Origin: a virus
IMG/VR virus record: IMGVR_UViG_3300050821_002720
Coordinates: 1-37,910 of that record
DNA length: 37,910 nucleotides
Strand: one strand, 5' to 3'
Part shown: piece by piece, positions 3,171 to 33,270 of the stretch
Numbering within the stretch: the first letter of the stretch is position 1
How the letters are laid out: every line of letters begins with the position of its first letter
Notes under the pieces: generated by a model
What the model was told of the DNA's origin: nothing
Databases searched by the model: none
Seen by the model: the letters and a program-made list of their open reading frames with translations, nothing else
Made by a program: the position numbers and the translations under genes

Positions 3171-3645
3171 ATATACTGTTGCCAAGGTAAGCGCTAATTC
3201 GCCGCGTACTTGGGCTTTCAAAGATAAGCGCACTGGCGCAGATATCCAAATGGAAACATATAAGGTTATGCTAGATGGCATCGATGAACCAGTAGACCTT
3301 AACCGGAAGCCTCACAATCCACCTAATAAGGGCGAAGTATTGATAGGCAGCTTAGAAGACTCAGACTTTGGCAAGAAGTTTAAGCCAGAGCGAAAGCCTT
3401 TTACGCCTGGTGGTAAAGATGAGAAGGCTATCCGCGCAATGTGGGCTATTAATGCTGCTATCGCTTGGCTGACTGATAGCACCCCAGATCCAGATGACAT
3501 TGCCAAGATTGAATCCTTAGCTACAGATTTCTTTGCTATGGTCGATAGAGTAAAAGGAGCTGAATCAATTAAACCAGATAAAGTCTTTCCTGTAGAAGAT
3601 GGTGAACCTGTGAAGCTTGACGATATACCGGATCAATTTAAGTAA
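3163..3645 (+). CDS. Putative ssDNA-binding (OB-fold) protein
   Basis: 160 residues with an AGGAGG site 7 nt before the ATG. The first 75 residues alternate hydrophobic and polar residues in short strands (YTVAKVSANS, ADIQMETYKVML, GEVLIGSL) as in an OB fold. A helical segment and a charged C-terminus follow. The extreme tail, LDDIPDQFK, resembles the acidic DDIPF tip with which bacterial SSB recruits partners. Location directly after an exonuclease also fits a recombination module. The assignment is inference; no signature residue proves ssDNA binding. Confidence 0.55.
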   Translation: MSEYTVAKVSANSPRTWAFKDKRTGADIQMETYKVMLDGIDEPVDLNRKPHNPPNKGEVLIGSLEDSDFGKKFKPERKPFTPGGKDEKAIRAMWAINAAIAWLTDSTPDPDDIAKIESLATDFFAMVDRVKGAESIKPDKVFPVEDGEPVKLDDIPDQFK

Positions 3646-3663
3646 TAAAGTAAGGAGGATAGA

Positions 3664-3963
3664 ATTATAAAACTCGCAGAAGCATTGGTGCTTAGGAAGC
3701 ACCTCGAAGCAAAGGTTAAGCAACTGGAGCCTATCAAGCTCCAGGGTGATCGCGGGCTGTTTGAAATCCAGACCCAGCGCTCTAAGATCAGTGAGGAGGT
3801 AGATGAGATCAAGACTCAGCTACCACGCATCACTATCGAGTCAGTGACCAAGGAATATAACAAGTATTCTAAGGCACTTCGCGAACTCGATACAGCTATC
3901 CAGCAAACCAACTGGGCAGCAGATCTCAAGGGTACAGTTACCCTTGATGGAATCGAAGTTTAG
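3664..3963 (+). CDS. DIP1984-like (septicolysin-type) protein, ATT/ATA start
   Basis: The N-terminus IKLAEALVLRKHLEAKVKQL resembles DIP1984/septicolysin-type proteins, which normally begin MKLAEAL. There is no ATG, GTG or TTG at that point: codons 3664-3669 are ATT ATA, behind a perfect AAGGAGG at 3652-3658 (5 or 8 nt away). The first TTG (3685) would remove the conserved segment and lies 26 nt from the ribosome binding site. I therefore start at ATT 3664 (99 aa). The protein is helical, probably coiled coil, and ends with a conserved-looking NWAADL segment. Biochemical role unknown. It immediately precedes the tRNA locus. Confidence 0.7.
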   Translation: MIKLAEALVLRKHLEAKVKQLEPIKLQGDRGLFEIQTQRSKISEEVDEIKTQLPRITIESVTKEYNKYSKALRELDTAIQQTNWAADLKGTVTLDGIEV

Positions 3964-3969
3964 CAAAAT

Positions 3970-4102
3970 GCGGTAATTATCTGCCGCTATCCGGTTATGA
4001 CTTGGCCTGTGAAAGTCTTTGGGAGTCAGACTTTAAAGACTAGTTTCCTGGCCAGGATACGTTCCTTCACAGACTGGTTGGCTTTACCAGCCACTTACAT
4101 TT
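3970..4102 (+). ncRNA. Structured 5' flank of the permuted tRNA
   Basis: This 133-nt stretch has no ORF but dense pairing: GCGG/CCGC near 3970-3986; a 7-bp helix CTGTGAA (4007-4013) with TTCACAG (4066-4072); inside it AAAGTCT (4012-4018) with AGACTTT (4028-4034) and the palindrome TCCTGGCCAGGA; then TGGCT (4079-4083) with AGCCA (4089-4093). TTGGCTT (4078-4084) is also complementary to AAGCCAA (4273-4279) in the other flank, so the two flanks could pair across the tRNA halves. The overall look is a folded RNA, possibly half of a split intron. Confidence 0.5.
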
Positions 4103-4143
4103 GGACAATGTGGTAGCGGGTTCGACTCCCGTCGGGGCCACCA
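4103..4143 (+). tRNA. 3' half of a circularly permuted tRNA
   Basis: Reads in order: anticodon 3' strand CAATG (4106-4110), 5-nt variable loop TGGTA, T arm GCGGG-TTCGACT-CCCGT with a canonical T loop, acceptor 3' strand CGGGGCC (4133-4139), discriminator A and encoded CCA (4141-4143). No matching 5' half lies upstream. The exact partner, GGCCCCG...CATTG, begins at 4223 downstream of tRNA-Gly. The first base of this half is uncertain (4103 to 4105). Confidence 0.8.
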
Positions 4144-4145
4144 AC

Positions 4146-4222
4146 GCGGGTGTAGCTCAGTTGTTTAGAGCGCGTCCTTGCCAAGGACGAGGTCAAGGGT
4201 TAAAGCCCCTTCACCCGCACCA
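4146..4222 (+). tRNA. tRNA-Gly (GCC)
   Basis: Complete 77-nt cloverleaf with CCA encoded: acceptor GCGGGTG/CACCCGC, D stem GCTC/GAGC, anticodon arm CGTCC-TTGCCAA-GGACG (anticodon GCC), T stem AAGGG/CCCTT. The T loop TTAAAGC departs from the usual TTCRANN, as phage tRNAs sometimes do. It starts 2 nt after the CCA of the permuted 3' half and ends directly against the 5' half, so its processing by RNase P and 3' maturation would also create the mature ends of the permuted tRNA. Confidence 0.9.
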
Positions 4223-4258
4223 GGCCCCGTAGCTTAACGGTAGAGCACATTGCTGTAA
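4223..4258 (+). tRNA. 5' half of a circularly permuted tRNA
   Basis: GGCCCCG acceptor strand, TA at 8-9, D arm GCTT-AACGGTA-GAGC with G18G19, A26, anticodon strand CATTG (4248-4252), then the loop bases CTGTAA. With the 3' half this makes a regular 76-nt class-I tRNA. If the junction follows position 37 the anticodon is GTA (Tyr, compatible with A73). If it follows T4256 and joins at G4103 it is GTG (His). Downstream there is no T arm or acceptor that could complete it in the ordinary order. Confidence 0.8.
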
Positions 4259-4437
4259 GAAGCAGCGGCATTAAGCCAAAGTTCACAAGATCACTGCCGA
4301 AGTCAAGAAGAATGTAATAAGCCCCGGCGTAAGTCTTCGTGCTAGCCAGCAGTCGGGAGAACAATAGAACGATTTAATTTTTTAGACATTTTTAATTACT
4401 CACCAACATGGGGAGTCGTAGCCGGATAGGAGCAGAT
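4259..4437 (+). ncRNA. Structured 3' flank of the permuted tRNA
   Basis: There is no ORF here. The first bases pair back onto the 5' half: TTGCTGT (4250-4256) with GCAGCGG (about 4262-4268), 7 bp closing on a U-G wobble and a 5-nt loop, which is how group I introns form P1. Further on, AAGCCAA (4273-4279) matches TTGGCTT in the upstream flank, CGGCA pairs TGCCG, and CGAAG pairs CTTCG. I could not identify a full group I core. The stretch after about 4370 is T-rich and may end the transcript. Confidence 0.45.
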
Positions 4438-32990: not shown

Positions 32991-33270
32991 CTCGCGCGAT
33001 TACACTAACACTAGTGATAGTGAAGTTAAAAACACTAACACTAACACTAGTGTTAAATCACTAAGAGAAGTACAGCTAATAGCCAATAAGCTTGAGCAGG
33101 CTCTTGGTAAGCAAATTCCCAGTAGATACCCGTACTACTGCAAGGTGGCCCGCGAACTACCTGAGAACCTTATCTGGAACTCCCTAGAAGCGGCCATGAA
33201 GGGCCAGTACCCGCCGCGCCTATTCAGCTATCTATCTAGCCAGTACATGAAAAAAGCCCCTACTATTTGA
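32959..33270 (+). CDS. Hypothetical protein inside the origin-like region (103 aa)
   Basis: The N-terminal 40 residues are low complexity and encoded by the ACACTA hexamer repeats (NTNTNTS). The rest is a compact helical domain, LREVQLIANKLEQALGKQIP, YYCKVARELPENLIWNSLEA, PRLFSYLSSQYMK. Replication initiator and replisome-organiser genes often contain the origin, so an initiator role is attractive but unproven. Its stop codon lies in the loop of the terminator at 33252-33281. Confidence 0.6.
   Translation: MQQISEVIHSSSRDYTNTSDSEVKNTNTNTSVKSLREVQLIANKLEQALGKQIPSRYPYYCKVARELPENLIWNSLEAAMKGQYPPRLFSYLSSQYMKKAPTI
33002..33055 (+). repeat. ACACTA hexamer clusters and 14-bp palindrome
   Basis: ACACTA occurs twice in a row at 33002-33013 and three times in a row at 33032-33049, each run followed by GTG. 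The second ends in the perfect palindrome TAACACTAGTGTTA (33042-33055). The six-base period keeps frame (Asn-Thr repeats), so it could be both coding and a protein-binding array. Confidence 0.65.

What the first reader, a model, noticed from the sequence alone, without database searches (positions are those of the whole stretch)
4103..4258. Circularly permuted tRNA with a complete tRNA-Gly nested between its halves
Seen: the 3' half (4103-4143: CAATG, TGGTA, T arm, CGGGGCC, A, CCA) precedes the 5' half (4223-4258: GGCCCCG, D arm, A, CATTG, CTGTAA). Acceptor pairs 7/7 and anticodon stem 5/5, and together they give a regular class-I tRNA with all usual invariant positions. Known: permuted tRNA genes are described in a red alga and some archaea, where a BHB endonuclease splices them; bacteria lack that enzyme. 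Inferred: processing of tRNA-Gly would create the CCA end and the 5' end, leaving only the anticodon-loop joint. Anticodon is GTA (Tyr) if joined at 37/38, or GTG (His) if joined at 35/36.
Basis: partly seen in the sequence, partly recalled or inferred. Interest (0 to 1): 0.93.

Follow-up and report, generated by a model that had tools for sequence, protein, structure and literature searches.

The report
tRNA mimic inside unnamed phage RNA
The 'back-to-front tRNA' is real, but it is not a tRNA waiting to be spliced: it is a tRNA-shaped module carried by a large, previously uncatalogued folded RNA that many bacterial viruses encode beside one small gene, and in this virus a complete glycine tRNA sits inside the module.

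Summary
The interpretation (a permuted tRNA gene needing an anticodon joint) is not supported. The flanks belong to a structured RNA of about 443 nt (3987-4429): a 17-bp closing stem, a pseudoknot, and a hairpin with a self-complementary loop. The same RNA lies beside a DUF6847 (DIP1984-type) gene in dozens of phage contigs and in cultured Vibrio phages PS32B.1 and 1.264.O; Rfam has no family for it. At one variable site its members carry a short hairpin, a whole tRNA, or a circularly permuted tRNA-like module (17 distinct ones examined). Every module helix covaries, the 'anticodon stem' included, but U33 is not kept. Two relatives close the 'acceptor' with a tetraloop, so no tRNA could form there. 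The architecture is that of the bacterial Y RNA YrlA, but the larger RNA is not a Y RNA by the tests made. I infer, without proof, a self-pairing phage RNA that displays a tRNA mimic; in this phage, processing of tRNA-Gly would also release that tRNA and expose a CCA end.

The parts
3685..3963 (+). DUF6847 (DIP1984-type) coiled-coil gene, the landmark of the RNA; real start is probably ATT/ATA at 3664-3669 behind AGGAGG
   Evidence: Pfam PF20935 E 4e-8; homologs next to the RNA in most loci
3987..4429 (+). the structured RNA as a whole (about 443 nt)
   Evidence: 17-bp closing helix, fold z-score -4.55, family model R2 trained without the window
3987..4003 (+). closing stem, 5' strand CTATCCGGTTATGACTT
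   Evidence: score 14.6, best of 30 shuffles 10.4; 36 of 52 family members reach p <= 0.033
4413..4429 (+). closing stem, 3' strand GAGTCGTAGCCGGATAG
4013..4041 (+). pseudoknot: a AAGTC 4013-4017, b AGTC 4024-4027, a' GACTT 4029-4033, b' GACT 4038-4041
   Evidence: descriptor hit; the same form with covariation in the family
4046..4057 (+). hairpin TCCT-GGCC-AGGA with self-complementary apical loop GGCC (candidate homodimer kissing loop)
   Evidence: palindromic apex in 39 of 46 distinct family hairpins
4094..4105 (+). CTTACA (can pair with 4254-4259) plus scaffold motif TTTGGA before ac3'
4106..4143 (+). permuted tRNA-like module, 3' half: ac3', variable, T arm, acceptor 3' strand, ACCA
4146..4222 (+). 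complete tRNA-Gly(GCC) with encoded CCA, in the loop of the module's acceptor stem
   Evidence: ARAGORN; Rfam
4223..4252 (+). permuted tRNA-like module, 5' half: acceptor 5' strand, D arm, ac5'
4252..4266 (+). possible hairpin GCTGT-AAGAA-GCAGC
   Evidence: sequence and minimum-energy fold; not tested across the family
4267..4277 (+). hairpin GGC-ATTAA-GCC; similar hairpins in L105, L106, L110, L111
   Evidence: sequence comparison

Best explanation
The finding is the tRNA-like module of a large structured non-coding RNA of the phage (3987-4429), not a split or permuted tRNA gene. Shown by sequence comparison: the module is joined to the RNA through its 'anticodon' stem and folds as T arm, acceptor stem, D arm, the arrangement of the tRNA-mimic domain of bacterial Y RNA (YrlA). 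The surrounding scaffold (closing stem, pseudoknot, hairpin with palindromic loop) is conserved in other phages beside a DUF6847 gene. Inferred: the palindromic loops let two or more copies kiss, so that the RNA works as a homo-oligomer. Inferred: the module presents a tRNA elbow to tRNA-handling proteins of the host (RNase P, tRNA-modifying enzymes, PNPase or EF-Tu are candidates). Inferred: in this phage the acceptor loop also carries tRNA-Gly, so RNase P and 3' processing would free that tRNA and leave a two-piece RNA with an exposed ACCA end. No anticodon loop is made. The confidence given is for the identity (module of a conserved scaffold RNA, not a spliced tRNA); for the inferred oligomer and mimic function it is about 0.35.
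For: Permuted modules in 18 of 73 DUF6847-adjacent regions, 0 of 730 shuffled regions and 0 in about 2,900 600-nt units of related phage contigs. 17 distinct modules: 97.4% of cells pair, 15 of 18 pairs change on both sides, 86 such cells against 23 in shuffles, 5 of 5 in the 'anticodon' stem. YrlA is the best Rfam match to relatives' modules, with T arm, closed acceptor and D arm aligned (L169 37.6 bits). Scaffold: pseudoknot and hairpin descriptor in 35 of 73 regions against 7 of 1,460 shuffles; covariation; palindromic apex in 39 of 46 hairpins. R2, trained without the window, has its best match at 4005-4064, 20.8 bits, E 0.009, next 9.5 bits. 17-bp closing stem. Fold z -4.55. Tetraloop acceptors in L125 and L169. 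Scaffold in cultured Vibrio phages.
Against: The module counts were made on hits chosen partly by pairing, so they are optimistic. The window and three relatives (L105, L106, L110) keep ACCA after the acceptor stem, which a purely structural mimic would not need; this leaves room for charging or CCA-dependent processing. The outer helix that would occupy the 'anticodon' is significant in L110 (p < 0.005) but not in the window alone (p = 0.07) nor family-wide. No expression, binding or dimerisation data exist.
Confidence: 0.8

Rival explanations
1. A true circularly permuted tRNA gene: the halves are cut from the leader and trailer and ligated in the anticodon loop to a tRNA-Tyr or tRNA-His.
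For: Perfect stems, all usual invariant bases, CCA, and a normal-looking loop CTGTAAA when joined at 37/38.
Against: No BHB geometry (a 1x6 internal loop instead); class-I body while bacterial tRNA-Tyr is normally class II; no G-1/C73 for His; relatives lack U33 and CCA and close the acceptor stem; no splicing enzyme among the window proteins scanned.
Confidence: 0.06
2. A permuted group I intron (permuted intron-exon order): the leader is the 3' intron half and the trailer the 5' half, splicing after U35 through a P1 made by CTGT and GCAGC.
For: GCTGT-AAGAA-GCAGC looks like the P1 of genuine group I introns in phage tRNAs found in passing (L006, L007, L011-L013).
Against: No group I match in either flank or the whole record; no omega-G at the matching 3' site for a 7-nt loop; the AGTC/GACT repeats first taken as P7 are a pseudoknot that is conserved in relatives.
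Confidence: 0.03
3. A two-piece, tmRNA-like RNA: RNase P and 3' processing at the nested tRNA leave two pieces held by the acceptor and anticodon stems; the ACCA end is charged and used.
For: ACCA directly after the acceptor stem in window, L105, L106, L110; processing sites coincide with tRNA-Gly ends.
Against: No tag frame was sought or is known; Rfam permuted tmRNA only 18.1 bits (threshold 47); no G3-U70; other members have no CCA and closed stems.
Confidence: 0.08
4. Debris of a tRNA array (tandem duplication and deletion leaving two half genes).
For: Half genes do occur in phage tRNA arrays (general knowledge, not tested here).
Against: The same arrangement with different, compensated stems at the same place in many phages; 0 of 730 shuffles.
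Confidence: 0.02

Closest known systems
YrlA, bacterial Y RNA (Rfam RF02553; tRNA-like module described in PMC8394870 and its references)
   Same: T arm, closed acceptor-like stem and D arm strung in permuted order on a stem; long stem joins the 5' and 3' ends
   Different: The RNA is about 443 nt, not 90-150; it has a pseudoknot and a palindromic hairpin; it scores below YrlA's threshold; no Ro60/Rsr (TROVE) gene in 19 records; the window has ACCA and a nested tRNA
GOLLD and ROOL ornate RNAs (PMC12286853)
   Same: Large structured phage/prophage RNAs near tRNAs; GOLLD linkers sometimes contain tRNAs; kissing loops between copies
   Different: No Rfam match to GOLLD or ROOL; smaller; different pseudoknot and motifs; oligomerisation here is only inferred from palindromic loops
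Circularly permuted tRNA genes of algae and archaea (review PMC3978253)
   Same: 3' half before 5' half, break at the anticodon loop
   Different: No BHB motif, no conserved anticodon loop, acceptor stem closed in relatives, embedded in a larger RNA
Two-piece (permuted) tmRNA (Rfam RF04321)
   Same: Order T arm, acceptor 3' strand, CCA, spacer, acceptor 5' strand
   Different: Has a true D stem; no G3-U70; Rfam score 18.1 against threshold 47; no tag reading frame known

Membership tests
Circularly permuted tRNA gene | 3' half precedes 5' half with matching acceptor and anticodon stems | tested here: met
Circularly permuted tRNA gene | BHB motif at the junction | tested here: not met
   Junction is C / TTTGGA (1x6) between CATTG/CAATG and TGTAAG/CTTACA; read by eye against the definition in PMC3978253
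Circularly permuted tRNA gene | Joined product has a functional anticodon loop, kept in relatives | tested here: not met
   U33 absent in most relatives; acceptor closed by tetraloop in L125 and L169
Circularly permuted tRNA gene | Joined mature tRNA in RNA | not testable with these tools
   no RNA data
Bacterial Y RNA (YrlA) | tRNA-like domain with D, T and acceptor arms on a stem | tested here: met
   alignments; module anatomy
Bacterial Y RNA (YrlA) | Rfam gathering score (69 bits) | tested here: not met
   window 25.1 bits (partial, mixing in the D arm of tRNA-Gly), relatives 36-39 bits
Bacterial Y RNA (YrlA) | Length 90-150 nt with basal stem joining the ends | tested here: not met
   basal stem present (17 bp) but about 443 nt
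Bacterial Y RNA (YrlA) | Partner Ro60/Rsr protein | tested here: inconclusive
   no TROVE domain in 19 phage records; a host Rsr was not tested
GOLLD / ROOL | Match to the Rfam models | tested here: not met
   no match
Permuted tmRNA | Rfam gathering score | tested here: not met
   18.1 bits, threshold 47
Group I intron (permuted) | Conserved core (RF00028) | tested here: not met
   halves tested apart, not as one rejoined sequence
DUF6847-associated phage RNA (defined here) | Next to a DUF6847 gene; closing stem; pseudoknot; hairpin with palindromic apex | tested here: met

The most novel reading that the evidence does not exclude
A new class of phage RNA that self-associates through palindromic kissing loops into a homo-oligomer and carries interchangeable tRNA cargo, whole tRNAs or permuted tRNA mimics, at one port; in this Saccharibacteria-type phage the mimic is opened by processing of a nested tRNA-Gly into a two-piece RNA with a chargeable CCA end.
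Probability: 0.3. Interest if true: 0.93.

Novelty: new variant of a known kind. Interest (0 to 1): 0.76.

Why it matters
It replaces an improbable reading (a bacterial permuted tRNA gene with no splicing enzyme) by one that can be tested: a conserved phage RNA, absent from Rfam, that displays tRNA mimics or tRNAs at a fixed site and has loops whose sequence varies while their self-complementarity stays. It would add a further phage RNA beside GOLLD and ROOL with tRNAs built in, extend Y-RNA-type tRNA mimicry to many phages, and is present in cultured Vibrio phages.

Tried and rejected
(1) Permuted group I intron: suggested by a P1-like hairpin and, for a while, by an apparent P7; dropped after Rfam found nothing and the 'P7' proved to be a pseudoknot shared by the family (checkpoint notes). 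(2) BHB splicing: geometry does not fit. (3) Permuted tmRNA: score too low. (4) Exact and degenerate D-arm patterns in viral and genome collections found no second copy of this element; they found ordinary tRNA-Tyr and group I intron tRNA-Asn genes instead. (5) Relatives found by terminase and GroEL show no permuted tRNA and no DUF6847 homolog, except L027. (6) Model R1 misses the window; R2, built from more divergent members without the window, finds it. (7) A pattern scan for the scaffold gave mostly chance hits in coding DNA; its one clear member, L187, again lies beside a DUF6847 gene. (8) An outer helix over the 'anticodon' is not significant family-wide.

Full report
Observation. The two tRNA halves, their order and the nested tRNA-Gly are exactly as described. 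All four stems pair, and rejoining them in silico gives what ARAGORN calls tRNA-Tyr(gta) or tRNA-His(gtg), according to the joint. A scanner for permuted tRNAs finds only this place in the window; 300 dinucleotide-shuffled windows give no hit of that quality. So it is real and not chance.

Where it is. The record is a 37.9-kb phage contig of IMG/VR. GroES/GroEL, a GH25 lysozyme, an SU10-like portal and a terminase whose best-covered match is to TM7 phage DolZOral124_53_65 (MG269973, which also has a chaperonin and an exonuclease) point to a Saccharibacteria-type host; this is inference.

First tests of mechanism. Bacteria are not known to have a BHB endonuclease (general knowledge), so I looked for a self-splicing solution. 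A hairpin GCTGT-AAGAA-GCAGC after the 5' half looks like the P1 of group I introns that sit in phage tRNA-Asn genes. But no group I model matches either flank or the record, and the repeated AGTC/GACT strings that I first took for P7 turned out to be something else.

The turning point. Scanning 80 contigs that hold a related terminase gave one more permuted tRNA, in L027, downstream of a homolog of the same small gene that precedes it in the window (DUF6847). Searching with that protein brought 70 phage loci. Downstream of the gene most of them carry a stretch of non-coding sequence with shared motifs, and in many a tRNA-like element at the same place. The 20 loci scanned against Rfam at its curated thresholds gave tRNAs only, no family for the surrounding RNA.

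The scaffold. Its 5' domain is an H-type pseudoknot (a, b, a', TTAA, b') followed by a hairpin. The form is constant while the letters change: 82.6% of cells pair against 57.0% in shuffles, covariation score 0.67 against 0.21, with 104 doubly changed cells against 34 in shuffles. A descriptor for it is met by 35 of 73 regions and by 7 of 1,460 shuffled ones; in the window it hits 4013-4057 (one further window hit at 33010; 0.17 hits expected by chance per window). The apex of the hairpin is a self-complementary tetramer in 39 of 46 distinct hairpins, with eight different palindromes (GGCC, GCGC, CCGG, TGCA, AGCT, TCGA, GATC, ACGT); one in sixteen would be expected. Selection for self-complementarity rather than for a sequence suggests pairing between identical copies. 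The 5' and 3' ends close in a long helix, 36 of 52 members at p <= 0.033; in the window CTATCCGGTTATGACTT 3987-4003 with GAGTCGTAGCCGGATAG 4413-4429. The window RNA folds 4.55 standard deviations below shuffles, though that figure includes the stable tRNA-Gly.

Is the window a member? A first model (R1) missed it, as it missed L105 and L106, while finding 55 family loci including the cultured Vibrio phages PS32B.1 and 1.264.O. A second model (R2), trained on more divergent members without the window, places its best match in the whole window at 4005-4064, 20.8 bits, E 0.009; the next is 9.5 bits. Together with synteny, the closing stem, the pseudoknot and the module I regard membership as established, though the window is a divergent member. 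Except for L027 itself, R1 finds nothing in 1.09 Mb of other phage DNA, and an independent pattern scan found one clear new member, again beside a DUF6847 gene.

The module. Permuted modules stand in 18 of 73 regions (strict rules), in none of 730 shuffles and in none of about 2,900 600-nt units of related phage contigs. In 17 distinct modules all four helices covary; the stem that corresponds to the anticodon stem has changes on both sides at 5 of 5 pairs. The hits were chosen partly by pairing, so these counts lean upwards, but the controls use the same rules on shuffled and unrelated DNA. The acceptor stem is closed by GAAA in L169, GAGA in L125, 1-16 nt in most others, 26 nt in L148 and a whole tRNA-Gly in the window. 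U33 is not kept. Bases just before ac3' show a recurrent (T)TGGA motif (a GGA/GGG string near ac3' in 9 of 17). These facts speak against an anticodon loop being made in the family.

What it resembles. The best Rfam match to the relatives' modules is YrlA, the bacterial Y RNA, with stem, T arm, closed acceptor hairpin and D arm aligned in order (L111 39.3, L169 37.6, L105 37.1, L125 36.3 bits). YrlA's tRNA-like domain is bound by PNPase and modified by DusA and TruB, and its basal stem holds the Ro60 ortholog Rsr (PMC8394870). Here the scores are below YrlA's threshold, the RNA is about three times longer, and 19 phage records have no TROVE gene, so the module looks and may work like the YrlA module but the RNA is not filed as a Y RNA. 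The nearest systems in kind are GOLLD and ROOL, phage RNAs near tRNAs that form cages by kissing loops and A-minor contacts; GOLLD linkers sometimes contain tRNAs (PMC12286853). Their models do not match here.

Most likely working. Shown: a conserved RNA with a tRNA-shaped module. Inferred: self-association through the palindromic hairpin; presentation of a tRNA elbow to tRNA-binding proteins; in this phage, and perhaps in L105, L106 and L110 where ACCA follows the acceptor stem, processing by RNase P and 3' nucleases into a two-piece RNA with a CCA end, with tRNA-Gly freed in the window. Whether that end is charged is unknown.

Limits. No RNA data; only one contig carries this exact arrangement; the paper library searched is open access only, so an earlier description of this RNA family cannot be excluded.

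Noticed in passing
window 4146-4222: The nested tRNA-Gly has U19 in the D loop and A56 (TTAAAGC T loop) in place of the near-invariant G19-C56, a compensated elbow pair.
   Followed up: no
L015 6328-6456: Phage tRNA with an insertion of about 50 nt in the anticodon loop and no group I match (Rfam tRNA 47.8 bits); the contig also has a tmRNA and a gene ARAGORN calls tRNA-Pyl.
   Followed up: no
L006, L007, L009, L011, L012, L013: Phage tRNA genes interrupted by group I introns after U35, apparently tRNA-Asn(GUU) (clear in L007, L012); Rfam hits in L007, L011, L012.
   Followed up: partly
L118, L130, L131, L144, L160, L170, L172 around 3370-3470; L171 2051-2126: Whole tRNAs in normal order sit at the place of the permuted module inside the same RNA, some with odd anticodons (TTA 'stop' in L171, ATG in L172, AAT in L160).
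   Followed up: partly
L175 (MW824407) 1801-2072 and L176 (MG592629) 1871-2143: Cultured Vibrio phages PS32B.1 and 1.264.O carry the RNA scaffold without any tRNA-like module, un-annotated.
   Followed up: yes
L017: A contig filed under a Thaumarchaeota genome holds a phage endolysin 74% identical to the window's and a GroEL; probably a mis-binned Saccharibacteria-type phage.
   Followed up: no
window 3651-3685: The DUF6847 gene probably starts at a non-ATG codon (ATT 3664 or ATA 3667) behind AGGAGG, as its relative in L027 reads MKIAEALLLRK where the window reads IKLAEALVLRK.
   Followed up: partly
L127 3460-3650, L141, L162: A second T arm and D arm in front of the permuted module; possibly two tRNA-like modules in tandem in one RNA.
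   Followed up: no
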